This document shows positions 3,749-14,626 of a DNA stretch of 64,000 nt, piece after piece. The DNA is from Halomonas organivorans (lineage in GTDB: Bacteria; Pseudomonadota; Gammaproteobacteria; Pseudomonadales; Halomonadaceae). The translations under genes were made by a program, and so were the position numbers. Location: NCBI RefSeq assembly GCF_014192055.1, contig NZ_JACHXM010000013.1, forward strand, positions 1 to 64,000, in the 5' to 3' direction. The notes under the pieces were generated by a model, which made no database searches, was not told where the DNA came from, and saw only the letters and a program-made list of their open reading frames with translations. Every line of letters starts with the position of its first letter. Positions within the stretch are counted from its first letter, which is position 1.

Positions 3749-4909
3749 TCAGTCGGTGGAGGGCAGGTCGGTCCAGCGGCTGCCGCCGGCCTGGCTTTGG
3801 GTGACCGCCTCGATGAAGGCCATGCCGCGCAGCCCCGAGGCCATGCCGGGCACGCCGGCGATGTCGCCGCGATCGCCGCGCCGGATGGCGGAGGCGGTGT
3901 CGCGATACAGGTTGCCCAGGGCCTCCAGGTAGCCTTCGGGGTGGCCGCCGGGCAGGCGCAGCCGCGCCATGACCGCGTCGACCAGCTCCGGCTGGTCGAT
4001 GCCGCCGCGCAGCACGCGCATCGGCGCGCCGCGGGAGCGGTGGATCAGGCTGTTGGGCTCCATCTGATGCCACTCCAGGGCGCCGTCTTCGCCGTAGAGG
4101 CGCAGCTTCAGGGCGTTTTCCTCGCCGGTGCTGACCTGGCTGGCGATCAGGGTGCCGCTGGCGCCCTCGGCGGTGCGCAGCAGCACGTCGCCGTCATCGT
4201 CCAGCCGACGGCCGTCGACGTGGCTGCCGAGCGAGGCGCACAGCGACGCGACGCGCTGGCCGGAGACGAACTCGGCCAGGCCGAAGGCGTGGGTACCGAT
4301 GTCGGCCATGCAGCCGCTGGGACCGGCCTGGGCCGGGTCGGTGCGCCAGCCGGCCTGCTTGTTGCCCTGGGTCTCGAGGGTCTCGCCGAGCCAGCCCTGG
4401 GGATACTCGACGTGGATCTTGCGTAGCCGGCCGAGCGTGCCGGCGGCGACCATGGCGCGGGCCTGCCACACCATCGGATAGCCCAGGTAGGTGTGGGCCA
4501 GGCCGTACAGGCCGCCGTGCTCGCGCCAGGTGGCGTCGAGGCCGCGGGCCTCGTCCAGCGACAGGGCGGCGGGCTTCTCGCAGAAGACGTGGAAGCCGGC
4601 GGCGAGGGCAGCGTCGGCGATCGGCACGTGAAGGTGGTTGGGGGTGACGATCACCAGCAGCTGCATGCGCTGGTCGGCGGGCAGGGCGCGTTCGGCGTTC
4701 AGCAGGCTCTGCCAGTCTGCGTACAGGCGCGATGCCGCTACGCCGCAGGCGGCGCCGGTGCGGGCGTTGTTGTCGGCATCGCGGCTGAAGGCGCCGCAGA
4801 CCAGCTCGAAGTGGCCGTCGAGGTTAGCGGCGAGACGATGGACCTGGCCGATGAAGGCGCCTTCGCCGCCGCCGACCATGCCCAGGCGGACTCTCGGAGT
4901 AGGGGACAT
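3749..4909 (-). CDS. Gfo/Idh/MocA family NAD(P)-dependent oxidoreductase
   Basis: A 386-residue cytoplasmic dehydrogenase. The N-terminal Rossmann domain starts with VRLGMVGGGEGAFIGQVH, and the CEKPAALSLDEA segment near residue 105 carries the EKP motif with its catalytic lysine. The C-terminal domain is the alpha/beta substrate half. The start at 4909 was chosen because AGGAG lies 7 bases upstream. The frame stays open well beyond it, antisense to the divergent genes, but that extension is only GC-driven. It is the first gene of the minus-strand arm, 34 bp downstream of a LacI-type palindrome at 4943-4958. Substrates in this family include myo-inositol, glucose and 3-keto sugars; which applies here is unknown. 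Confidence 0.9.
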   Translation of the reverse strand: MSPTPRVRLGMVGGGEGAFIGQVHRLAANLDGHFELVCGAFSRDADNNARTGAACGVAASRLYADWQSLLNAERALPADQRMQLLVIVTPNHLHVPIADAALAAGFHVFCEKPAALSLDEARGLDATWREHGGLYGLAHTYLGYPMVWQARAMVAAGTLGRLRKIHVEYPQGWLGETLETQGNKQAGWRTDPAQAGPSGCMADIGTHAFGLAEFVSGQRVASLCASLGSHVDGRRLDDDGDVLLRTAEGASGTLIASQVSTGEENALKLRLYGEDGALEWHQMEPNSLIHRSRGAPMRVLRGGIDQPELVDAVMARLRLPGGHPEGYLEALGNLYRDTASAIRRGDRGDIAGVPGMASGLRGMAFIEAVTQSQAGGSRWTDLPSTD

Positions 4910-4942
4910 CGTTTGCTCCTGGATCGTGAGTGAACAAGCGTT

Positions 4943-4958
4943 ATGTAACCGGTTACAT
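4943..4958. promoter_or_regulatory. LacI-type operator, copy 1
   Basis: A perfect 16-bp palindrome, ATGTAACCGGTTACAT, 34 bp upstream of the Gfo/Idh/MocA start. The central CG with symmetric arms is typical of LacI-family operators. The probable binder is the LacI-family protein encoded at 13622. Confidence 0.8.
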
Positions 4959-5153
4959 TTATTGTTCTGAAAAATAGAGCACGGCGTCTGGATCGAGCAA
5001 TGCGACCAAAGGCTATGCGGCCAATGTCTAGTCTTCGCGGGGAGAAGCGGGCATACGCCGCTGTGCCGGGGCTCGCAGGGCGATCGATGCTGTCGCGAGG
5101 GTAGTGATGGATGGGTTGCTCTATTGCGGCACGAAGGGTGATGACCTAAATAG

Positions 5154-5167
5154 TGTAACCGGTTACA
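5154..5167. promoter_or_regulatory. LacI-type operator, copy 2
   Basis: The palindrome TGTAACCGGTTACA, identical over 14 bp to the core of the copy at 4944-4957 and exactly 210 bp from it. It ends 60 bp before the start of the exported TIM-barrel protein and probably represses the plus-strand operon. Confidence 0.8.
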
Positions 5168-5227
5168 TGGCTGCTGGATGCGGTCATGGCTCGTCATCGA
5201 GCCCTCAACGACACGGAGACACGCCTC

Positions 5228-6103
5228 ATGCACAACAACACGACACGCCCGCTCGCCGCCTTTCGCCGCCGCGCACTGCTCGCCTGCCTGGGGGCTGCCC
5301 TGGCGCCCCCGGGCCTGGCTTACGCCCAGGCACAGGACCAGGCGGTGGCCGCCCAGATGTACACCCTGCGCGACTTCGGCTCGCTGGAGAAGCAGTTCGC
5401 GGCCGTCGAGCGCGCCGGCATCGAATTGGTGGAACTGGTCGGCGACCAGGGCATCGAGGCCGACGAGATGAATGCCCTGCTGGCGCGCCACGATCTTGAG
5501 GTCGTCTCGAGCCACGTGCCCCTCGAGGATCTGCGCCATGATCTCGACCACGTCGTCGCCTTCCACCAGGCGATCGGCAACGACACCCTGGTGATTCCCT
5601 ACCTGGCCGAGGATGCGCGCCCCGGCAGTGCCGAGGGCTGGCAGGCGCTCGGCGAGGAGATCGGCGGCCTGGCCAACCGACTCGCCGAGGACGACATGCG
5701 CCTGGCCTACCACAACCACGACTTCGAGATGCAGACCTTCGACGGCCGCACGGCGCTGGAAATCCTGATGGAGGCCGCCGGGCCCGAGGTGTTGGGCGAG
5801 GTCGACCTGGCCTGGGTGGCTCGCGGCGGCCGGGATCCGGCCGACTACCTCGAGCATTTCGACGGCCGGCTGTTTGCCGTGCACGCCAAGGACAATGCCC
5901 CGGCCGGTACCGCCGAGGATCAGCGCGGCTTCGCCATCGTCGGCCAGGGCGTCCTCGACTGGGACGAGATCCTGCCCGCCGCCCGCGAGGCCGGCGTCGA
6001 GGTCTACGTCATCGAACACGACCAGCCGAAGGATGCCCAGGCGGTGCTGACCGAGGGCCATCGATTCCTCAGTGAGGCACTGGTGTCGGCGGACGCCGAG
6101 TGA
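5228..6103 (+). CDS. Exported sugar phosphate isomerase/epimerase-like protein
   Basis: A 291-residue TIM-barrel protein of the xylose isomerase-like family with an N-terminal export signal: FRRRALLACLG followed by a hydrophobic stretch ending in AYAQA. The arginines suggest Tat export. The mature domain has barrel landmarks: a glutamate in IELVELVGDQG, MRLAYHNHDFEM, EVDLAWVARGG and LFAVHAKDN. ATG 5228 is chosen because GGAG at 5215-5218 precedes it by 9 bases. It leads the operon with the GMC oxidoreductase. A periplasmic member of this family next to a sugar oxidase suggests it isomerises or beta-eliminates an oxidised glycoside, an inference from context. Confidence 0.8.
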   Translation: MHNNTTRPLAAFRRRALLACLGAALAPPGLAYAQAQDQAVAAQMYTLRDFGSLEKQFAAVERAGIELVELVGDQGIEADEMNALLARHDLEVVSSHVPLEDLRHDLDHVVAFHQAIGNDTLVIPYLAEDARPGSAEGWQALGEEIGGLANRLAEDDMRLAYHNHDFEMQTFDGRTALEILMEAAGPEVLGEVDLAWVARGGRDPADYLEHFDGRLFAVHAKDNAPAGTAEDQRGFAIVGQGVLDWDEILPAAREAGVEVYVIEHDQPKDAQAVLTEGHRFLSEALVSADAE

Positions 6104-6157
6104 CGCCGGCATAGGGTGAGGCGCGAACAGGACAGGCAAAGGACAAGGAGACCGATC

Positions 6158-7846
6158 GTGGCAGATCATCATTACGACGCCATCGTGGTGGGTTCGGGCA
6201 TCAGCGGCGGCTGGGCCGCCAAGGAGCTCACCGAGAAGGGACTCAAGGTGCTGCTGCTGGAGCGCGGCCGCAACATCGAGCACATCAAGGACTACCACAA
6301 CGCCCACAAGGAGGCCTGGGACTATCCGCACCGCGGCGAGCCGACCCGGCAGATGAAGGCGGACTACCCGGTGCTCAGCCGCGACTATCCGCTCAACGAG
6401 CAGACCCTGGGCATGTGGGCCGACGAGCAGGCCAATCCCTACGTCGAACGCCAGCGCTTCGACTGGTTCCGCGGCTATCACGTGGGCGGCCGCTCGCTGC
6501 TGTGGGGCCGCCAGAGTTACCGTTGGTCGCCGGCGGACTTCGAGGCCAACCAGCGCGAAGGCGTGGCCGTCGACTGGCCGATCCGCTACGAGGACCTGGC
6601 GCCCTGGTACGACTACGTCGAACGCTTCGCCGGCATCGCCGGGACCCGCGAGGGACTGGATATCCTGCCCGACGGTGAGTTCCTGCCGCCGATTCCGCTC
6701 AACCGGGTCGAGAAGGATGTGGCCGCGCGCCTCGAGCAATCCTTCGGCGGCCGCCGCCATCTCATCCACAGCCGGGTGGCCAACATCACCCAGCCCAAGC
6801 CGGAACAGAACCGGGTCAACTGCCAGTTCCGCAACAAGTGCTGGCTGGGCTGCCCCTACGGCGGCTATTTCAGCACCCAGTCGGCGACCCTGCCGGTGGC
6901 CATGGCCACCGGCAACCTGACCCTCAGGCCCTTCTCGATCGTTACCCAGGTGCTCTACGACAAGGACCGCGGCCGCGCCCGGGGCGTCGAGGTGCTGGAC
7001 GCCGAGAACGGCCAGACCTACGAGTACACCGCCGACGTGGTGTTCCTCAACGCCTCCACCTTCAACTCCACCTGGGTGCTGATGAACTCGGCCACCGACG
7101 TCTGGCCGGGCGGGCTCGGCAGCAGCAGTGGGGAGCTCGGTCACAACGTCATGGACCACCACTTCCGCGCCGGCGCCAGCGGCGAGATCGAGGGCTATCG
7201 GGACACCTACTACTTCGGGAGACGCCCCGCGGGCTTCTACATTCCGCGCTTTCGTAACGTCGGCGACGACCGCCGCGACTACCTGCGCGGCTTCGGCTAT
7301 CAGGGCTCGGCCAGTCGCGAGCGCTGGGATCGTGAGGTCGCCGAGGTCAGCCACGGCGCCGAGCTCAAGCAGGCGCTCAGCCAGCCGGGCGGCTGGAGCA
7401 TCGGCATGACCGCTTTCGGGGAGATGCTGCCGCGACACGCCAACCGCATCTCGCTGGACCACGGCGTCACCGACGCCTGGGGGCTGCCGGTGCTGGCGAT
7501 GGACGTCGGGCTTGGCGACAACGAGCGCGCCATGCGCCGCGACATGGTCCAGGACGCGGTGGACATGCTCGAGGCCGCCGGGGTGCAGAACGTGACGCCC
7601 GAGGAGGGCGACTACGCGCCGGGGATGGGCATCCACGAGATGGGCACCGCGCGCATGGGACGCGATCCCGCCACCTCGGTGCTCAACGCCCACAACCAGG
7701 TGTGGGACGCGCCCAACGTCTATGTCACCGACGGCGCCTGCATGACCTCGTCGTCCTGCGTCAATCCATCGCTGACCTACATGGCGCTGACTGCCCGTGC
7801 GGTCGACCACGCCGTGCGCGAGTTGAAGAGGGGGAACCTGGCATGA
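6158..7846 (+). CDS. GMC-family FAD oxidoreductase, probable large subunit of a membrane-linked sugar dehydrogenase
   Basis: A 562-residue flavoprotein. The ADP-binding motif VVGSGISGGWAAKEL is at residues 10-24, with LLLERG following. C-terminal GMC landmarks are GIHEMGTARMG and a conserved VTDGACMTSSSCVNPSLT segment that carries the substrate-site asparagine. The closest families are gluconate 2-dehydrogenase and glucoside 3-dehydrogenase large subunits, which pass electrons to a cytochrome or quinone rather than oxygen. GTG 6158 follows AAGGAG (6145-6150). Its stop overlaps the small-subunit start by 4 bp. No signal peptide is present, so it may be exported with its Tat-signal partner. No cytochrome subunit gene lies nearby. 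Confidence 0.88.
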   Translation: MADHHYDAIVVGSGISGGWAAKELTEKGLKVLLLERGRNIEHIKDYHNAHKEAWDYPHRGEPTRQMKADYPVLSRDYPLNEQTLGMWADEQANPYVERQRFDWFRGYHVGGRSLLWGRQSYRWSPADFEANQREGVAVDWPIRYEDLAPWYDYVERFAGIAGTREGLDILPDGEFLPPIPLNRVEKDVAARLEQSFGGRRHLIHSRVANITQPKPEQNRVNCQFRNKCWLGCPYGGYFSTQSATLPVAMATGNLTLRPFSIVTQVLYDKDRGRARGVEVLDAENGQTYEYTADVVFLNASTFNSTWVLMNSATDVWPGGLGSSSGELGHNVMDHHFRAGASGEIEGYRDTYYFGRRPAGFYIPRFRNVGDDRRDYLRGFGYQGSASRERWDREVAEVSHGAELKQALSQPGGWSIGMTAFGEMLPRHANRISLDHGVTDAWGLPVLAMDVGLGDNERAMRRDMVQDAVDMLEAAGVQNVTPEEGDYAPGMGIHEMGTARMGRDPATSVLNAHNQVWDAPNVYVTDGACMTSSSCVNPSLTYMALTARAVDHAVRELKRGNLA

Positions 7847-8442
7847 ATCGCCGCGAACTGCTCAAGATGATCGCCGCCGCCACCGGCACCGCGCTGGTCG
7901 GCGGCCAGGCCCTGACGGCCTTCGCCAGCGGCCGGGCCGAGGCCGTGCTGACCGACGAGGACGTGCGCCTGCTGGATGAAGTGGCCGAGACCCTGCTACC
8001 GCGCACCGACACCCCTGGCGCCAAGGACGCCGAGGTCGGCGACTTCATGCGGGTGTTCGTGCGCGACTGCTATACCGCCGAGCAGCAGGCGCGGTTTCGC
8101 GACGGCATCGCCCGGGTCGAGGCGCACAGCCGTGCGGCCCACGGCGTCGGCTTCCTGGCCCTGGACGCGCCGCGCCGCGGCGAGGTCGTCGCCGCGCTGG
8201 ACCGCGAGGCTCGGGCGCGGATGGAAAGCGAGGCTCGGGCGCGAATGGAAAGCGAGGCTCGGGCGCAGGTGGAGACGCAAAGCGAGCCCCAGGGCTTCAC
8301 TCTGATCAAGCAGCTGACCCTGTTCGGCTTCTTCACCTCGAAGGTCGGCGCCACCGAGGTGCTGCGCTACGTGGCCGTGCCCGGCCACTATGACGGCAAC
8401 CTTGCCTACGAGCCCGGCGAGCCGGCCTGGGCGACGACCTGA
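7843..8442 (+). CDS. Gluconate 2-dehydrogenase subunit 3-family protein (Tat signal)
   Basis: A 199-residue small subunit partnering the GMC flavoprotein. It begins with a twin-arginine signal, MNRRELLKMIAAATGTALVGG, then the family's core with LLDEVAETLLPRTDTPGAKDA and a C-terminal LFGFFTSKVGATEVLRY motif. Translational coupling (4-bp overlap) supports a complex with the upstream protein; its Tat signal probably takes both to the periplasm. An odd insertion of three 8-residue EARARMES-like repeats (residues 122-145) interrupts the middle of the protein and is encoded by 24-bp tandem repeats. Confidence 0.85.
   Translation: MNRRELLKMIAAATGTALVGGQALTAFASGRAEAVLTDEDVRLLDEVAETLLPRTDTPGAKDAEVGDFMRVFVRDCYTAEQQARFRDGIARVEAHSRAAHGVGFLALDAPRRGEVVAALDREARARMESEARARMESEARAQVETQSEPQGFTLIKQLTLFGFFTSKVGATEVLRYVAVPGHYDGNLAYEPGEPAWATT
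8206..8277 (+). repeat. 24-bp tandem repeat, three units, in frame
   Basis: Three consecutive 24-bp units (8206-8229, 8230-8253, 8254-8277) lie inside the small-subunit gene and keep the reading frame. Units 1 and 2 differ by one base; unit 3 is diverged at its 3' half. They encode a charged EARARMES repeat, probably a surface helix that can change length by slippage. Confidence 0.9.
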
Positions 8443-8511
8443 GCGCATCAGAGCCCACCCGAGTGCGGGCGGTCTCGCCCGCGCGTTTCACCTGCGATAG
8501 GGAGACATCCT

Positions 8512-9270
8512 ATGTACAAGCGAGTTTCCACCGGCGTGCTGATGACCGGGCTGGCCGCCCTGGCGTCGACCGCTGCCCAGGCCGACGAGCTCAGCGACGC
8601 CGAGCGAGCGGCCAGAACGGAGGTCTGGGCGCCGGTGCCGCCGGTGGTGGCGGCGCCGGCCGGCGGGGTGCCGTCGGACGCGGTGGTGCTGTTCGATGGC
8701 ACGGATCTGTCCGCCTGGGAAGGCGAGGAGGGCGGGCCGGCCGAGTGGCGGGTCGAGGACGGTGCCATGACGGTGGTGCCTGGCGCCGGCGGCATCCGCA
8801 CCCGGGAGGCGTTCTGCGACGTCCAGCTGCACCTTGAATGGCGCACCCCGGCTGATATCGACGGTTTCGACGGCCAGGATCGCGGCAACAGCGGCGTCTT
8901 CCTGCAGCAGCGCTACGAGATCCAGGTGCTGGATTCCCACGACAATCCTACCTACGCCAATGGCCAGGCGGCCTCGATCTACAAGCAGCACATGCCGTTG
9001 GTCAATGCCTCCCGGGAGCCCGGCGAGTGGCAGAGTTACGACATCCTCTACACCGCGCCACGCTTCGACGATGGAGGCGAGCTGGACACGCCGGCCCACG
9101 TCACGGTGCTGCACAACGGCGTGCTGGTGCAGCATCACGCCACGATCCAGGGCACCACCGAGTGGATCGGGGCACCCTCCTACGACGAGGCCCACGGCTG
9201 CGCGCCGCTTTATCTCCAGGATCACGATGCGGCGGTGAGCTTTCGCAACATCTGGATAAGGGAGCTCTAG
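8512..9270 (+). CDS. DUF1080 (3-keto-disaccharide hydrolase) family protein, exported
   Basis: A 252-residue secreted protein. A Sec signal ends near AAQADEL. The mature part is a concanavalin-like beta-sandwich of the DUF1080 family, with VVLFDGTDLSAWEG at the start, DRGNSGVFLQQRYEIQVLDS in the middle and VSFRNIWIREL at the very end. Family members are annotated as 3-keto-disaccharide hydrolases that cleave glycosides already oxidised at C3. It lies 69 bp after the dehydrogenase small subunit on the same strand, consistent with oxidation first and cleavage next in the periplasm. Confidence 0.85.
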   Translation: MYKRVSTGVLMTGLAALASTAAQADELSDAERAARTEVWAPVPPVVAAPAGGVPSDAVVLFDGTDLSAWEGEEGGPAEWRVEDGAMTVVPGAGGIRTREAFCDVQLHLEWRTPADIDGFDGQDRGNSGVFLQQRYEIQVLDSHDNPTYANGQAASIYKQHMPLVNASREPGEWQSYDILYTAPRFDDGGELDTPAHVTVLHNGVLVQHHATIQGTTEWIGAPSYDEAHGCAPLYLQDHDAAVSFRNIWIREL

Positions 9271-9298
9271 TCGGCGGTGGCCGCTGGACTCGGCAGGC

Positions 9299-9540
9299 GG
9301 ATGCGATAAGCCGGAAAGCCCGCCGCGTCGCCCGTTTCGCGGCGCGATTGAACCAGTGAGACAAGGGACGCATGTCCAACATACGCAAGGTGGCCGAGTT
9401 GGCCGGGGTCTCCGTGGCCACGGTGTCGCGAACCCTCAAGTCGCCGGATATCGTGTCGCCGGCCACGCGCGACAAGGTGCTGCAAGCGGTCGAGACGGCG
9501 GGCTACCGGCCCAATCGGATAGCGGTGCAGTTCCGTTCGC
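9299..9540 (+). repeat. Left copy of a 242-bp direct repeat (lacI 5' end)
   Basis: This segment matches 13549-13790 at a constant offset of 4250 bp with about 7 mismatches. Six of the mismatches lie in the 73 bp before the ATG and only one in the 169 bp of coding sequence. It contains the lacI ribosome-binding region and the first 56 codons. Together with the right copy it brackets an AT-richer 4-kb insert. Confidence 0.92.
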
Positions 9541-9599
9541 TCGGCTTATCGTCAGTTATCCCTCACCTTGATGACGACTCCGGGCAAGGCCGGGAATAA
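9372..9599 (+). pseudogene. Truncated LacI-family regulator (DNA-binding domain only)
   Basis: The first 56 codons match the intact regulator at 13622 with one substitution (I for M at residue 50). The match covers the helix-turn-helix RKVAELAGVSVATVSRTL and most of the linker. The sequence diverges at 9541, and the frame runs through foreign DNA for 19 codons to a stop at 9597-9599. The ligand and dimerisation domain is lost. This is the original chromosomal lacI 5' end, left behind directly downstream of the DUF1080 gene. If translated, the 75-residue product keeps the DNA-reading head but not the part needed to dimerise. Confidence 0.88.
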
Positions 9600-9954
9600 C
9601 CCTGACAGCCATCAGGCAACGCTGGCGCGTTGAAGCAGGTCGTTACGGGGAGCCGCTCGGTTCAAGACATCCGTTCGTTTCTCTGCAGCATGAGACAGCA
9701 TGGTGGAGGCACTTTGCAGAACCTGTCAGTCAAGTCCTACGAGACTCGTCGAAGATCGCTTATTTAGCGTTTTCTTTCTTCTCTAGTAAAAGTTCGAGGT
9801 GTTGATCGGAAAATATATTAGTAAATTATTGAATGTTTATTATAGAAGTGCTAGCTTTTGTTTTCGTGTTTGGCTGTGGTGCTGAATAAAAATCTAAGCA
9901 ATGTCTTGATGTTGTAGATCTCGTTTGTTCAAGGAAGAATGAAGGAGAGTGATA
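9600..9954. other. AT-rich non-coding stretch at the left of the island
   Basis: No convincing gene is seen here. The stretch turns strongly AT-rich from about 9760 and ends in a good ribosome-binding site (GAAGGAGA, 9941-9948) for the next gene, so it probably holds the promoter of the island operon. Confidence 0.5.
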
Positions 9955-10464
9955 ATGCATACCTGTTCTTACTGGCCTGGACCTCATGGGTTGAACTCGT
10001 TCCAAGTGCAAGGTGTGACCTCCGCCTGTCATGCTGATCAAGCTCATTTGATAAGCGCATCGAAATCTCGACATGAGTGTTACAGAGATGTTGTTGCTCC
10101 TTTTTGCGTAGAGACGTTCACTAGAAAAAACAACATAGAACACTTCCTGTTCAATGATGCTGAATATCAAGGAACGGATGTCGGGGAAGCTGTCTCTTGT
10201 GACCTTGAGGGAAATCAAAGTAATCCGCCGGCTAGTTTAATTAATGGAAGCTTTCGAGTCGAGGGCTCTCTGATTCCTTGCGCGCTAAACAGTGTATGCG
10301 CTATAGCGGCTTATTTCGCACCGCGAGGTGATGTTGCGGAGGGACGCGAGGCCTGTGCCTTTATAGCCGAACGGCTTCTCATTGGCTGCGTTGGGCTGCA
10401 TAAGCAGGAGATTGTGATTAAGGTCTTTTTGGCAAGGCTGTTTGTGGTTATTCCTCGGTGCTGA
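9955..10464 (+). CDS. Cysteine-rich hypothetical protein of the island
   Basis: Not recognised. It has 169 residues, including 10 cysteines spread along the chain, no clear signal peptide, and a hydrophobic C-terminal stretch (KVFLARLFVVIP). AAGGAG at 9942-9947 lies 7 bases before ATG 9955, which is the best evidence that it is real. The codon mix is ordinary for AT-richer DNA. It sits upstream of two M16-like genes on the same strand, with a 112-bp gap. It could be a substrate, a partner or an unrelated cargo protein. Overlapping minus-strand frames (9826-10218, 10311-10607) lack ribosome-binding sites and look weaker. Confidence 0.42.
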   Translation: MHTCSYWPGPHGLNSFQVQGVTSACHADQAHLISASKSRHECYRDVVAPFCVETFTRKNNIEHFLFNDAEYQGTDVGEAVSCDLEGNQSNPPASLINGSFRVEGSLIPCALNSVCAIAAYFAPRGDVAEGREACAFIAERLLIGCVGLHKQEIVIKVFLARLFVVIPRC

Positions 10465-10576
10465 TTTATCAATGTCGCCCTTTGGGAACCGGATACCCGA
10501 TGGCTGAGGGGATTCATCTCCTGGTTTTTATGGTGATATTCTGGATGTCTTATTGGCTGATTGACAGGTATGTGGA

Positions 10577-11896
10577 ATGATGGCTGGCTACAGAAAGTTT
10601 TGGTCATGTTTCCATTGGTTGCCAGGAGTGGCCGCAGGCATCGTCTTTTTCATGATCGTCTGGCTCCTCGTGGACAGCGTTGGGGGGCAGGAGCATGACG
10701 TCTATGTCCAACGTACCGATGCGCGGGAGGTTCAGGTCCACGTCATTGTTGGTCATGGCCATCCAGCTCCTGGGTTGGCTCATTATGTCGAGCATCTCGC
10801 TTGGCTGAATACAGTCGGTGGCAAACAGCGAAGCGCTGATCGGCACTCCAATGCCTGGACGAATCGCTATGCTGCCGGTTATTGGCTGTCCGGTAAGCCT
10901 GACGATCTGGAAGATATACTGCAAAACCTGTCTGGCCTTTTTCACCCTTTGGGGATTCCTGCTGAATTTGCTGAAGAAGAGCGCGATATCATCCTGCGTG
11001 AATACGAGCATCAAACCGTCAATAAACCGGATGCACAAGCGGCAGAAGCGATGAATGCGTTCCTCTATGCTGGTAATTCCATTGCATCTTCGGTGATTGG
11101 TACACCGGGCGATATCAGGGCGCTGGATTACGATGAGGCTCGGGCGCTGCACGAGGCTACGCATCAACCGGATAATGCCACTCTGGTGGTGGTCGGCGAT
11201 GTAAGCGAGCGGCAGGTTAGCCGAGCATTGCAAAAAGTTGACTGGCCTGGGCTGGAAAAAGAGAATACTGATATCGTGCCGCCAACCTTTGAACTGGCCC
11301 CGCCTGCCAAGGCGATGCTGCGCTATCCCCAGGCGGATGCATCTCCGCGCTTGACATTTCGAAGAGTGGTTGAGCTGCCCGAGCCTGTGCAATTTGACCT
11401 GCTTGAGGCGCATGCAACGCTGTTGCGGGATATCCTCGATACCAACCTACCGGGGGGATTAGCTGGCCCCTTGCGCTTCGATGCCTCGATCGCACGCCGT
11501 TTTGATATACAAATCTGGCCAATCGACGAGCGTCATGTTGAGCTAAGCTTTACTGCCGCACCAGACCGTGAGGCGTCACTTTCCTATGTGCGAGTCGCCT
11601 TTGAGGAAAAGCTTGCTGAGATCGCCGCCTCAGGAATTCCTGAGGAGACCTACCACCGCGTTTTCAGCCGCTTTGAGCATTTCTGGCCTGACTGGGATGA
11701 CAGCGATGAAAGTGCACGCTGGATGGCTGGCTATGTTCTCGACCGAGTCTCCGCACTTCGCAAACCGCTACAAGTCTCTGACGTGAAGCGCCTCCAGCAC
11801 AACCTTTCGTACCAAACGATCAATACCTTACTCAACGAAATAGCCGGGGAAGGGCGAACCGCCGCTGCCTTCATCGGCCCTGAGGAGAGATTCTAA
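10577..11896 (+). CDS. M16-family zinc metallopeptidase, membrane-anchored, catalytic residues present
   Basis: A 439-residue protein with one N-terminal membrane segment (about residues 14-34) followed by an M16 (pitrilysin/MPP-like) domain. The inverted zinc motif HYVEH is at residues 69-73 with the third ligand in the expected E-x6-E pattern (E135 and E142). The rest resembles an M16 N-terminal half plus an M16_C-like domain, including DNATLVVVGDVSE. A signal anchor would place the peptidase in the periplasm. The ATG at 11896 of the next gene overlaps its stop by one base, so the two are coupled. Paired M16 proteins of this kind process peptides or assemble as a two-chain protease. Confidence 0.78.
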   Translation: MMAGYRKFWSCFHWLPGVAAGIVFFMIVWLLVDSVGGQEHDVYVQRTDAREVQVHVIVGHGHPAPGLAHYVEHLAWLNTVGGKQRSADRHSNAWTNRYAAGYWLSGKPDDLEDILQNLSGLFHPLGIPAEFAEEERDIILREYEHQTVNKPDAQAAEAMNAFLYAGNSIASSVIGTPGDIRALDYDEARALHEATHQPDNATLVVVGDVSERQVSRALQKVDWPGLEKENTDIVPPTFELAPPAKAMLRYPQADASPRLTFRRVVELPEPVQFDLLEAHATLLRDILDTNLPGGLAGPLRFDASIARRFDIQIWPIDERHVELSFTAAPDREASLSYVRVAFEEKLAEIAASGIPEETYHRVFSRFEHFWPDWDDSDESARWMAGYVLDRVSALRKPLQVSDVKRLQHNLSYQTINTLLNEIAGEGRTAAAFIGPEERF

Positions 11897-13332
11897 TGAT
11901 TCGATGGATCCTGCCGGCTGCCGTGATTGTCAGCCTAGCTGCCTGCTCTTCGGAAGTCAGCAATGAAGGCACTCCTACTGCCAGCAGCGAACTCAGCCCT
12001 GGTGGGATTTCCTACACCTTGATTCATGTGCCTGAAGATGATGTTGCCATTCATGTTGCTTGGCCTACCGACTGGGCTTACCGCGAAGATACCAATAAGG
12101 CGGCGCCGCTGGTGGGTGCCGAATTGATGCTTGCCGGTGGTGCTCAGGGGTATCCGGCGGGTGATGTCGGTGAGCGTTGGGCCGACTTGAATGCAGGTGG
12201 GAATCTCTATGGTGTGGCTAGCGACCATATCGTAGGTGAATTGGTCTTTGAGCGTGAGGACATCAGCGAAGTGGTCGAGATTGCCAATGCCCACTTGCGT
12301 GAGCCTTTGTTGGGGCAGACATGGTTGAACCGAATAAGCGATGGCGTCGAGCAGAGCGTCAATGAAGAACGTTCGCAACCTGCGGCTGCTGGTTTTGAGG
12401 CAGTTCGCTGGACGGTGCTTGGTGAGCAGCCTTTGCGTAATGCGTTGTCTCTACAGGGAGGGAATGCATTTGAAGCGCTTTCACGAGATGACATCCTGGC
12501 TTGGCATGCCGAGACGTTTACTCGTACCCCTGAAGCGGTCACGGTGGCGGGCGACATAGATGCTGAGGCAGCGGGTCAAGCGCTCGATTCATTACTCAAA
12601 GGGTTGCCGGAGAAGGGGCGGAGTTTGGCAAGGGGGGTTAAAACGGATTTCAAGCCGCGACGTATCCTGCTTCATATGCCCGAAGCTGAAGTTTCAAGCC
12701 TTGCCTTTGTGGCGCCAGTTCCACCCACCCGGCTAGGCGGGGAGATTGAAGATGCATTGTTGATCGATGCACTTGGAGGAGACGATCAAAGTGTCTTGTT
12801 CAATGCGATGCGAACACATCTTCGTGCCAGCTATGCGTTTGGAGCAGGAATGGATAATTTGACTGGTGATCACCGAGTGATGTCCATGGCGGGGGAGGTC
12901 GATACGAGCAAGATCGCTGAAGCCGAGAGCGTCGTTCGCGAGGCGTATAGGAAGTTTCGGAAGACCGGGATGGAGGGCGATATTGTCGAACGAAAAGTAC
13001 CATTGGAAGCGTATTTTTCTGAGATCAATGACCATGTGATGGACCTTGCGCGTGTCGAGTTACAGAGCTCGCTTGACGGTGGTGATCCTGGCCGCGTGCT
13101 AAGGATTATGGACGAGATTGAAGCGGTAACCGACGTTTCCTTGAATGAGCGGTTGAAAGATGCCTTCCCCGAGATGGATGAATTCACCGTCATAGCGGTA
13201 TCGCCAGAGGCCGATTCCTTGCCTGATGCCTGTGTCATCACAACACCACGTGAGGCAGTTGACTGCTTGTACAGTGATGGTGTGTACAGTGATGGTTATC
13301 ATCCGACTCAGGCCCGCGTGGGGGCGCTATAG
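11896..13332 (+). CDS. M16-like lipoprotein lacking the zinc motif (inactive partner)
   Basis: A 478-residue lipoprotein with lipobox LAAC near residue 17, preceded by a short hydrophobic signal. The body has the M16 layout, but the place of the HxxEH motif reads LVGAELMLAGGAQG, so it cannot bind zinc in the usual way. TGAGGAGAGA lies just before its ATG, and it is translationally coupled to the active M16 gene. Active/inactive M16 pairs form one working protease in several systems (for example mitochondrial processing peptidase and AlbE/AlbF). Its 3' end carries a small tandem repeat (YSDGVYSDG). Confidence 0.75.
   Translation: MIRWILPAAVIVSLAACSSEVSNEGTPTASSELSPGGISYTLIHVPEDDVAIHVAWPTDWAYREDTNKAAPLVGAELMLAGGAQGYPAGDVGERWADLNAGGNLYGVASDHIVGELVFEREDISEVVEIANAHLREPLLGQTWLNRISDGVEQSVNEERSQPAAAGFEAVRWTVLGEQPLRNALSLQGGNAFEALSRDDILAWHAETFTRTPEAVTVAGDIDAEAAGQALDSLLKGLPEKGRSLARGVKTDFKPRRILLHMPEAEVSSLAFVAPVPPTRLGGEIEDALLIDALGGDDQSVLFNAMRTHLRASYAFGAGMDNLTGDHRVMSMAGEVDTSKIAEAESVVREAYRKFRKTGMEGDIVERKVPLEAYFSEINDHVMDLARVELQSSLDGGDPGRVLRIMDEIEAVTDVSLNERLKDAFPEMDEFTVIAVSPEADSLPDACVITTPREAVDCLYSDGVYSDGYHPTQARVGAL
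13268..13296 (+). repeat. Small tandem repeat at the 3' end of the M16-like gene
   Basis: TGTACAGTGATGGT occurs at 13268-13281 and 13283-13296 (15-bp period), in frame, encoding a YSDGV/YSDGY duplication near the C terminus. Confidence 0.8.
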
Positions 13333-13548
13333 TCAAGCAGTGTTTTCTGGTGCCTCCGATCATGAAGTAGGGCACCATGAGGGAGCGCTATGGTCACCTC
13401 GCTTTCAGTAGCCAACGGTCAGGGACATGCCATCACACCTCAGCCCGTACAGTGCGTCGACGCTGCGGAGTTGGCCTGCCTACCCAACAGGCGAGGTTCG
13501 CGACATTGGGGCACGACACGGGATAGCTGTGTGCTGGACGCAAAAGCC

Positions 13549-13790
13549 GGATGCGATAAGCTGTAATGCCCGCCGCGTTGCCCGTTTCGCGGCGCGATTG
13601 AACCAGTAAGACAGGGGACGCATGTCCAACATACGCAAGGTGGCCGAGTTGGCCGGGGTCTCCGTGGCCACGGTGTCGCGAACCCTCAAGTCGCCGGATA
13701 TCGTGTCGCCGGCCACGCGCGACAAGGTGCTGCAAGCGGTCGAGACGGCGGGCTACCGGCCCAATCGGATGGCGGTGCAGTTCCGTTCGC
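13549..13790 (+). repeat. Right copy of the 242-bp direct repeat (lacI 5' end)
   Basis: Counterpart of 9299-9540, about 97% identical. Here the repeat continues into an intact lacI gene. The 216 bp between the M16-like stop and this repeat hold no recognisable gene. The native upstream region of lacI now lies 4.25 kb away, so this intact copy depends on a promoter in the repeat or in island DNA. Confidence 0.92.
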
Positions 13791-14626
13791 GGCGTAGCCA
13801 CAACCTGGCGGTGCTGGTGCCGACCATTGCCAACACCTTCTTCGCCCGGGTCATCGCCGGGATCCAGCAGGCGGCTCGGGAACAGGGCTATGGCGTGCTG
13901 CTGTGCAATACGCTGGGCCGCGAGGAGGAAGAGCTCCAGTATGCGGGCATGGTTGCCGCCCGCCAGGCCGACGGCATCATCCAACTGCGCGCCTTCAATC
14001 CCTTTCCCGAGGATGCCGTCGAGCCGGGGCAGGCATTGCCGATGGTCAACGCCTGCGAAGTGCTCGACGACGCGCCCTGTCCGACGGTGAAGATCGACAA
14101 TCGAGCGGCGGCGCGCACTCTCACCGAGCACCTCATCGCGCTGGGTCACCGACGTATCGCCATGATCCAGGGCCCCCGGCGCAGCCCGCTGACCCGCGAT
14201 CGCGTGGCGGGGTACCGAGACGCCCTGGAGGCCGCCGGCATCGTGCCCGACGATGCGCTGCTGTGTCCCGGCGATTTCACCCCAAGGGCCGGGCACGAGG
14301 CGGTGACGACCCTGCTGGACCGGACGGTGCGCCCCACGGCGATCTTCTGCGAGAGCGACGAGATGGCCATCGGCGCGATCAGTCGCCTCAAGCAGGCCGG
14401 GCTGTCGGTGCCCGATGACGTCTCCGTGGCCGGGTTCGATGATATCGCCTTCGCCCGCTACAGCGATCCACCCCTGACCACCGTCGCCCAGCCCGCCGAG
14501 GCCTTCGGTCGCCGTGCGGTCGACATGCTGATCGATATCCTGGAGGCGCGCGGGCAGGGCGCCTCGCATGTCGTGCTGCCCTACGAGCTGGTGATTCGGG
14601 ACAGCACGGCCGCTCCCCGTGCCTGA
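13622..14626 (+). CDS. LacI-family transcriptional regulator (intact copy)
   Basis: A 334-residue repressor. The N-terminal HTH (RKVAELAGVSVATVSRTL, residues 5-22) and hinge (about 45-60) are followed by a periplasmic-binding-protein-like effector domain (NLAVLVPTIANTFFARVIAG onward), with GHRRIAMIQG and the late PDDVSVAGFDDIAFARYSDPPLTTV signature. It probably binds the twin TGTAACCGGTTACA palindromes at 4944 and 5154 and controls the divergent glycoside-oxidation operons, from which it was separated by the island. GGGGACG at 13613-13619 lies just before its ATG. The effector is probably a sugar or oxidised sugar. Confidence 0.9.
   Translation: MSNIRKVAELAGVSVATVSRTLKSPDIVSPATRDKVLQAVETAGYRPNRMAVQFRSRRSHNLAVLVPTIANTFFARVIAGIQQAAREQGYGVLLCNTLGREEEELQYAGMVAARQADGIIQLRAFNPFPEDAVEPGQALPMVNACEVLDDAPCPTVKIDNRAAARTLTEHLIALGHRRIAMIQGPRRSPLTRDRVAGYRDALEAAGIVPDDALLCPGDFTPRAGHEAVTTLLDRTVRPTAIFCESDEMAIGAISRLKQAGLSVPDDVSVAGFDDIAFARYSDPPLTTVAQPAEAFGRRAVDMLIDILEARGQGASHVVLPYELVIRDSTAAPRA

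What the first reader, a model, noticed from the sequence alone, without database searches (positions are those of the whole stretch)
9955..13332. Cysteine-rich unknown protein followed by an active/inactive M16 peptidase pair
The island operon has a 10-cysteine 169-residue protein with a strong ribosome-binding site, then a membrane-anchored M16 peptidase with complete HxxEH and E-x6-E motifs, and a lipoprotein M16 partner that lacks them. Paired M16 proteins process peptides in several maturation systems. A mobile, self-contained processing cassette (bacteriocin, signal peptide or envelope protein) would be new. The link between the first protein and the pair is only positional.
Basis: partly seen in the sequence, partly recalled or inferred. 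Interest (0 to 1): 0.7.

Follow-up and report, generated by a model that had tools for sequence, protein, structure and literature searches.

The report
Peptidase pair outliving its toxin cluster
The supposed cysteine-rich protein is the rotting stump of a gene from a toxin-like cluster, while the two peptidase genes beside it have been kept intact after the rest of the cluster died, possibly because they still help protect the cell.

Summary
The M16 pair is real; the Cys-rich protein is not. In relatives the same operon holds a bacteriocin-like cassette: M3-like/HlyC-like protein, HlyC-type acyltransferase, Gly-rich ~100-aa peptide, small hydrophobic protein, M16A, M16B, type I exporter. The window's 169-aa frame is the decayed start of the first gene, frameshifted, without its HExxH, and fused by a ~1.6-kb deletion to a frameshifted small-protein gene. 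On the window lineage this stump changed at the neutral rate (0.35 substitutions/site, similar at all codon positions), while M16A+M16B stayed constrained (dS 0.35, dN 0.07, omega 0.19). Five of 15 chosen genomes hold the pair without recognisable precursor or cognate exporter. Precursor and small protein come in two matching types, swapped together between sister cassettes, so the small protein is the likelier specific immunity; the pair is shared by both types. The pair is predicted to be periplasmic, which type I cargo normally bypasses. Best reading: a periplasmic M16B heterodimer that clears such peptides and outlives the toxin. Maturation (as AlbF/AlbE) and general housekeeping remain open. 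Shown: cassette, decay, retention. Inferred: toxicity, protection.

The parts
9283..9540 (.). left copy of the 258-bp flanking direct repeat (sequence upstream of lacI plus the lacI 5' end)
   Evidence: 95% identical to 13533-13790
9372..9599 (+). truncated lacI-type frame (75 aa, DNA-binding domain only)
   Evidence: PF00356 E 6.9e-18
9838..9954 (+). upstream region of the dead first gene, partly conserved (9838-9860 with L024; 9918 onward with L023 and L024), including the ribosome-binding site
10399..10580 (+). remnant of the small hydrophobic-protein gene (putative immunity type), frameshifted by one base
   Evidence: (query IM23: 63% and 75% identity in two frames)
10577..11896 (+). M16A: membrane-anchored M16 peptidase with HxxEH and E-x6-E, retained under purifying selection
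11896..13332 (+). M16B: lipoprotein M16 partner without the zinc site
13267..13329 (+). window-specific C-terminal tail of M16B (the other 14 aligned copies end at the matching Cys or one residue later; predicted disordered), holding a 14-nt tandem duplication
13533..13790 (.). right copy of the flanking direct repeat, joined to the complete lacI-type gene (13622-14626)

Best explanation
The island is the wreck of a type-I-secreted, HlyC-associated peptide (bacteriocin-like) cassette. The toxin side (first gene, acyltransferase, Gly-rich precursor, exporter) is dead or gone, and the 169-aa 'Cys-rich' frame is its stump. What is still alive is a periplasmic M16B heterodimer: M16A gives the zinc site and membrane anchor, M16B the inactive half and a lipid anchor. 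I propose that the pair protects the envelope by degrading such peptides (the strain's own in cassette strains, a neighbour's in strains like this one), as a broad helper beside the type-specific small immunity protein, and so can outlive the toxin. Shown: homology, decay, selective retention, no toxin-side gene found in the genome. Inferred: heterodimer, periplasmic site, antibacterial activity of the peptide, protection.
For: Cassette in relatives. Stump. On the window branch the stump evolved at 0.346 substitutions/site (95% 0.28-0.41; codon positions 0.37/0.39/0.29), equal to the M16 pair's dS (0.352), while the pair's dN is 0.068 (omega 0.19, 95% 0.14-0.25). Second case: G633 keeps only a small hydrophobic protein (49% identical to one of G644's), M16A and M16B, omega 0.22 (0.15-0.32) against 0.20 for its cassette-bearing sister. 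Both lie inside the Halomonadaceae clade, whose other six members all have the toxin side. Of 15 chosen genomes, the 5 classed as pair-only by neighbourhood have no precursor match and no cognate ABC at E 1e-130; 4 of 5 have no acyltransferase match and the fifth, G780, only two distant ones on another contig. The 10 cassette genomes match, largely because the queries come from them. Location: hydrophobic N-terminus in 11 of 15 M16A as given, lipobox in 13 of 15 M16B. Fold of M16B. Periplasmic M16 proteases that process imported proteins are known (FusC; PMC6793856, passages).
Against: No experiment shows that the peptide kills or that the pair protects. Precursors and small proteins fall into the same two types in the six Halomonadaceae cassettes (best of the 10 possible 3+3 splits; small proteins match only within type), and the types cut across the M16 tree (L025 with L026 100/100, L023 with L024 85.5/88). 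So the specific immunity is more likely the small protein, which is broken in the window. The best-known bacteriocin-linked M16B pair, AlbF/AlbE, is described as acting in maturation (PMC12731061, passages); no C39 domain was found in the exporter, so another trimming enzyme may be needed; and a CAAX protease beside a bacteriocin, SilX, proved not to give immunity (PMC9298176, abstract). Cassette-free distant M16 pairs exist (L071-L073). Parsimony puts the pair-only state at the root, so outside Halomonadaceae loss and gain are not told apart.
Confidence: 0.42

Rival explanations
1. Maturation: the M16 pair is the leader peptidase or trimming enzyme of the exported Gly-rich peptide, as AlbF/AlbE for subtilosin; in the window it survives by processing some other peptide.
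For: Beside precursor and exporter in relatives; one pair serves both precursor types; no peptidase domain found in the exporter; AlbF/AlbE precedent (PMC12731061, passages).
Against: Pair constrained for about the whole window branch without cassette; 5 of 15 chosen genomes keep it without a precursor match; the predicted periplasmic site is normally bypassed by type I secretion (established knowledge).
Confidence: 0.24
2. Housekeeping: the pair is a general periplasmic peptide scavenger that the cassette recruited; pair-only strains simply keep the general job.
For: Distant M16 pairs without cassette in three genomes (L071-L073; 28-37% identity of M16B), two of them beside a valyl-tRNA synthetase gene; pair-only is the parsimonious root state.
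Against: Patchy: M16B in 8 of 275 genomes of the window's family (E 1e-20) and in 1 of 369 sampled genomes of its class, the window's own (E 1e-30). A general function should not be so rare; 6 of the 8 carriers have the toxin side.
Confidence: 0.25
3. One reading: the pair processes the 169-aa Cys-rich protein.
For: Adjacency and a good ribosome-binding site only.
Against: The frame is a neutrally decaying pseudogene fragment with frameshifts and a ~1.6-kb deletion.
Confidence: 0.02

Closest known systems
AlbF/AlbE M16B pair of the subtilosin cluster
   Same: M16B pair linked to a bacteriocin (maturation; PMC12731061, passages)
   Different: Subtilosin is a sactipeptide made by a radical-SAM enzyme in Gram-positives (recalled); here a HlyC-type acyltransferase and type I export, and the pair also occurs without a toxin
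Cdz system of Caulobacter crescentus (PMC5380434, passages)
   Same: Type I secretion of small glycine-zipper proteins (84 and 86 aa) and a small membrane immunity protein
   Different: 'acyltransferase' and 'peptidase' do not occur in that paper's main text (a nearby CaaX protease is dispensable there); in our precursors GxxxG exceeds shuffles at p<0.05 in only 1 of 11
CdiC lysyl acyltransferase of class IV CDI systems (PMC8510554, abstract and outline)
   Same: HlyC-family acyltransferase used in competition between bacteria
   Different: Substrate is CdiA, a type V secreted effector; here a ~100-aa peptide, without any lysine in 2 of 11 precursors
SPH2681/SPH2682 and TTHA1264/TTHA1265 M16B heterodimers
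   Same: M16A profile best matches 3amj_C and 3ami; M16B fold best matches TTHA1265 (5hxk) and 3amj_B
   Different: No toxin cassette known to me beside them (recalled)
Nisin resistance protein NSR (PMC7616364, passages)
   Same: Precedent for resistance by degrading a bacteriocin
   Different: Not an M16 pair; found in Gram-positives (recalled)

Membership tests
M16B heterodimeric metallopeptidase | One subunit with HxxEH and downstream Glu | tested here: met
   15 of 15 M16A. Window M16A over the Pfam cut-offs; the L025 M16A falls just under them
M16B heterodimeric metallopeptidase | Adjacent partner of M16 fold without the zinc site | tested here: met
   HxxEH in 0 of 15 M16B; AF2 pLDDT 85.7; Foldseek 5hxk_B E 4e-22, 3amj_B E 1e-21
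M16B heterodimeric metallopeptidase | Physical heterodimer with zinc-dependent proteolysis | not testable with these tools
   needs purified proteins
EF-P 5-aminopentanol-associated YfmF/YfmH (NCBIfam) | Score over the curated cut-offs (285 / 250 bits) | tested here: not met
   20-23 bits for the window pair
HlyC/RTX toxin-activating acyltransferase (relatives' cassette) | PF02794 over cut-off | tested here: met
   89.2 bits against 25 (L025); alignment matches ApxC 4whn, E 2.9e-16; no match in the window's genome
HlyC/RTX toxin-activating acyltransferase (relatives' cassette) | Substrate with an acceptor lysine | tested here: inconclusive
   Precursors of L026 and L049 have no Lys, the other 9 of 11 have 1-3; the true substrate is unknown
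Type I secretion (relatives' cassette) | HlyB-type ABC and HlyD-type adaptor | tested here: met
   HlyD TIGR01843 327.7 bits, cut-off 208.65; ABC TIGR01846 483 bits, under its cut-off of 725.55 (N-terminal part missing)
Cdz-like glycine-zipper bacteriocin | Small type I secreted peptide with a glycine zipper | tested here: inconclusive
   Gly 15-35%; GxxxG above shuffles at p<0.05 in 1 of 11, [GA]xxx[GA]xxx[GA] in 4 of 11
Subtilosin/sactipeptide (AlbEF) cluster | Radical-SAM maturase beside the M16 pair | tested here: not met
   None among the eight cassette proteins of L025 scanned
Orphan immunity module | Kept intact under selection where the toxin is lost | tested here: met
Orphan immunity module | Specific to, and protective against, the cognate toxin | tested here: inconclusive
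   Protection not testable here; by type-matching the small protein, not the pair, looks specific

The most novel reading that the evidence does not exclude
A new kind of lipidated, type-I-secreted peptide weapon of Halomonadaceae and Rhodobacterales. A HlyC-family acyltransferase, coupled or fused to an M3-like protein, acts on a Gly-rich peptide that can lack lysine; precursor and small immunity protein are swapped as a module; and a periplasmic M16 heterodimer gives a second, broad layer of protection that persists and travels on its own.
Probability: 0.27. Interest if true: 0.75.

Novelty: new variant of a known kind. Interest (0 to 1): 0.55.

Why it matters
If the pair protects, it would be a proteolytic, two-subunit layer of bacteriocin defence in Gram-negatives, and orphan M16 pairs would mark strains resistant to an uncharacterised toxin. 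The intact cassette in named strains is itself a candidate weapon with an unusual part list: HlyC-type acyltransferase, M3-like protein, swappable precursor/immunity module, M16 pair, exporter without a peptidase domain. The window is a clean natural experiment: in one operon the toxin-side sequence decays neutrally while the peptidase pair stays constrained.

Tried and rejected
Rejected: the Cys-rich protein as a real gene. Rejected: membership of YfmF/YfmH, scores far under the cut-offs. Anti-phage defence: no PADLOC match at E 0.01 for six proteins tried. Plasmid or phage carriage: no match of M16B or the 169-aa frame in 72,556 plasmid records, nor of M16A in 50,697 phage records; other combinations were not run. 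A glycine-zipper claim for the precursor was not upheld by shuffles in most sequences.

Mobility is unexplained. Direct repeats of host DNA, different in sequence and length, lie at the edges in the window (258 bp), L025 (691), L026 (239), L049 (pieces of 68, 30 and 29) and L053 (42). Of the other 13 loci scanned, 11 gave no repeat, L027 gave repeats away from the pair, and L072 (a distant pair) a 25-bp repeat far out on either side (L031, L067 and L070 were not scanned). In the window's island I saw no recombinase gene (reading, no dedicated search). But L070 has integrase and resolvase genes beside the pair, and L047 an IS110-type transposase near its exporter.

Controls and their limits: (HlyC model, own genome) rang in none of its 14 control genomes, so it does not prove absence; one search is better. 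The window's genome has other ABC proteins like the exporter, best 28% identity. Precursor matches are by construction for cassette genomes; a much diverged precursor could be missed. Genes called small hydrophobic proteins matched no Pfam family over its cut-off. Literature: ten searches showed me no description of this cassette; the library holds open-licence papers only and I saw listings, abstracts or passages.

Dropped rows and choices: searches were given 15 genomes of my choosing; the genomes of L029 and L031 (contig edge), G705 (contig edge, broken M16B) and the distant G679, G787 and G1038 were left out. In the tree L031 was coded pair-only, L070 as unknown and the three distant pairs as pair-only. 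L028 was dropped from the gene-1 alignment because its frame holds a stop. The L023 M16A starts late, and G256's M16B comes from another contig (L047). L024's M16A branch (dS 0.30) differs from its M16B branch (0.09), so recombination is possible there. Rates are Nei-Gojobori/Jukes-Cantor three-branch estimates, not a codon-model test. In the M16A rows of L028 and L029 the N-terminus looks more like a cleaved signal peptide (by eye).

Full report
WHAT IS IN THE WINDOW. M16A and M16B match M16 families. The 169-aa frame matches no Pfam family (E up to 1), and two NCBIfam models only far below their cut-offs.

WHAT THE FIRST FRAME REALLY IS. A scan of one genome per species gave nine loci with M16A relatives, and a survey of the window's family (Halomonadaceae, as inferred from its named members) gave 8 of 275 genomes with M16B at E 1e-20, the window's included. 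Six of these eight (G016, Halomonas maura; G256, Litchfieldella qijiaojingensis; G584, Halomonas sp. CUBES01; G616; G631, Halomonas sp. SpR1; G644) carry upstream of the pair a ~380-aa gene and further cassette genes. The window's frame matches the start of that gene in 6 of 6 (best 99.8 bits, L023; best of 50 shuffled versions 30 bits). The DNA alignment shows a 60-base deletion, a one-base insertion and a one-base deletion around the HExxH codons, then the loss of about 1.6 kb (rest of gene 1, acyltransferase, precursor) that joins it to the small-protein gene, itself frameshifted. The start region with its ribosome-binding site aligns with the relatives. It is a pseudogene fragment; four of its ten cysteines align with a cysteine of L023.

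THE INTACT CASSETTE. In L025 the order is: 383-aa protein (weak M3 oligoendopeptidase match around HETAH, E 6.5e-4, and weak HlyC match at its C-terminus, E 0.16, both far under cut-off), HlyC acyltransferase (PF02794, 89.2 bits), 99-aa Gly-rich peptide, 59-aa small hydrophobic protein, M16A, M16B, type I ABC (no C39 match), HlyD. The AF2 model of gene 1 (pLDDT 73.9) resembles oligoendopeptidase F weakly (best E 2.5e-3, TM 0.42) and its last part GNAT acyltransferases more weakly still (E 0.14 and worse). HExxH is present in 9 of 10 gene-1 proteins, not in L049. In L029 and L030 gene 1 and the acyltransferase are one frame. The acyltransferase alignment matches the solved ApxC. Precursors share the start DL-x4-SF-x-G in 11 of 11, preceded by (S/A)M-x in 10 of 11, and are 15-35% Gly; two of eleven have no lysine, which is awkward for a textbook lysine acyltransferase acting on them.

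PRECURSOR AND SMALL PROTEIN ARE SWAPPED TOGETHER. Among the six Halomonadaceae cassettes the small proteins fall in two groups that match only within the group at E 0.01: L023, L026, L049 and, separately, L024, L025, L052, with G633's small protein in the second; the window's remnant matches the first. The precursors split the same way after the shared start: 49-77% identity within, 39-52% between; this split is the best of the 10 possible 3+3 splits. In the M16 tree, however, L025 pairs with L026 (100/100) and L023 with L024 (85.5/88). So precursor and small protein seem to be exchanged as a unit over a more stable set of other genes, as toxin/immunity pairs are, and the M16 pair serves both types.

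THE PAIR. HxxEH followed by E-x6-E stands in 15 of 15 M16A and HxxEH in 0 of 15 M16B. M16B keeps R-x2-LRASY in 15 of 15, an R-x6-Y pair that I recall as substrate-binding in M16 enzymes. The M16B model is confident (85.7) and matches subunits of solved M16B heterodimers. A hydrophobic N-terminal stretch was found in 11 of 15 M16A as given (L023, L067, L068 and L069 were given from late starts), and a lipobox in 13 of 15 M16B. Both are therefore predicted to act in the periplasm, which a type I substrate normally bypasses (established knowledge).

THE PAIR OUTLIVES THE CASSETTE. On the window branch, measured against G256 and L024, the stump accumulated 0.346 substitutions per site (95% 0.28-0.41), similarly at codon positions 1, 2 and 3 (0.365, 0.389, 0.285); the M16 pair has dS 0.352 but dN 0.068, omega 0.19 (0.14-0.25). 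So gene 1 has been free of constraint for about the whole branch and the pair has not. G633 is a second case: small protein + M16A + M16B, with 42-bp repeats outside them, omega 0.22 (0.15-0.32), its cassette-bearing sister 0.20. Both lie inside the Halomonadaceae clade (100/100) whose other members have the toxin side. In the order of the Loktanella genome G648, M16B was found in 9 of 390 genomes at E 1e-30: three pair-only loci (G648, G780, G681), two cassettes (G714, G1022), one contig-edge case with a broken M16B (G705) and three distant pairs (G679, G787, G1038). In 15 chosen genomes searched whole, precursor matches occur in the 10 cassette genomes (by construction) and in 0 of 5 pair-only genomes; the cognate ABC (E 1e-130) in 9 of 10 (not G016; in G1022 on another contig) and 0 of 5; the acyltransferase in 10 of 10 and, among pair-only genomes, only as two distant copies in G780 (33% and 23% identity, another contig). 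Among 369 sampled genomes of the window's class only its own has the pair at E 1e-30.

MECHANISM. Retention without toxin, predicted periplasmic site and patchy occurrence fit a protective, peptide-clearing protease best; since the small protein looks like the specific immunity, I see the pair as a broad second layer and give this 0.42. Maturation has AlbF/AlbE, the one-pair-for-both-types pattern and the lack of a peptidase domain in the exporter in its favour. Housekeeping has the distant cassette-free pairs and the root state. Nothing here shows that the peptide is toxic.

KNOWN AND NEW. M16B pairs linked to bacteriocins, type I secreted Gly-rich weapons (Cdz), HlyC-type enzymes in bacterial competition (CdiC), periplasmic M16 proteases acting on imported proteins and degradation of a bacteriocin as resistance (NSR) are each known. 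Their combination, and M16 pairs kept after toxin loss, I did not find in ten searches of an open-licence library (listed in Tried and rejected). The locus itself is a remnant; the interest lies in the cassette and in the selective survival of the pair.

Noticed in passing
window 9283-9540 and 13533-13790; L025 145-835/9414-10103; L026 5159-5395/14131-14369; L049 3330-3447/12179-12480; L053 5437-5478/8544-8585: Islands sit between direct repeats of host DNA that differ in sequence and length (42-691 bp) from site to site, as after insertion with target duplication or one-sided homologous recombination.
   Followed up: partly
window 9372-9599: A truncated LacI-type frame with the DNA-binding domain and no ligand domain, beside the complete gene.
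   Followed up: no
L026 7417-7722, L049 5874-6203: Precursor peptides without a single lysine in clusters with a HlyC-type (lysine) acyltransferase.
   Followed up: partly
L025 2835-3391 against L026 7417-7956; L023 against L024: Precursor and small hydrophobic protein are exchanged together between sister cassettes.
   Followed up: yes
L024 (Halomonas maura) 5564-10633: First gene, acyltransferase, precursor and M16 pair present, but no cognate exporter in the whole genome: a half-lost state. It lies beside the orthologous lacI gene, as in the window.
   Followed up: partly
G1022 contigs C2, C7, C16, C19, C28: Several acyltransferase and precursor matches and an ABC on another contig: perhaps more than one cassette.
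   Followed up: no
L070 1682-4695; L047 2023-3000: Integrase and resolvase genes beside an M16 pair in L070, and an IS110-type transposase near the exporter in L047.
   Followed up: partly
window 13267-13329: Window-specific C-terminal tail of M16B with a 14-nt tandem duplication, predicted disordered.
   Followed up: partly
L071, L072, L073: Distant M16 pairs without a cassette, two of them (L071, L072) beside a valyl-tRNA synthetase gene: a possible ancestral housekeeping pair.
   Followed up: partly
L049 gene 1 (4137-5285): First His of HExxH replaced by Leu: the peptidase activity of gene 1 may not be needed.
   Followed up: no
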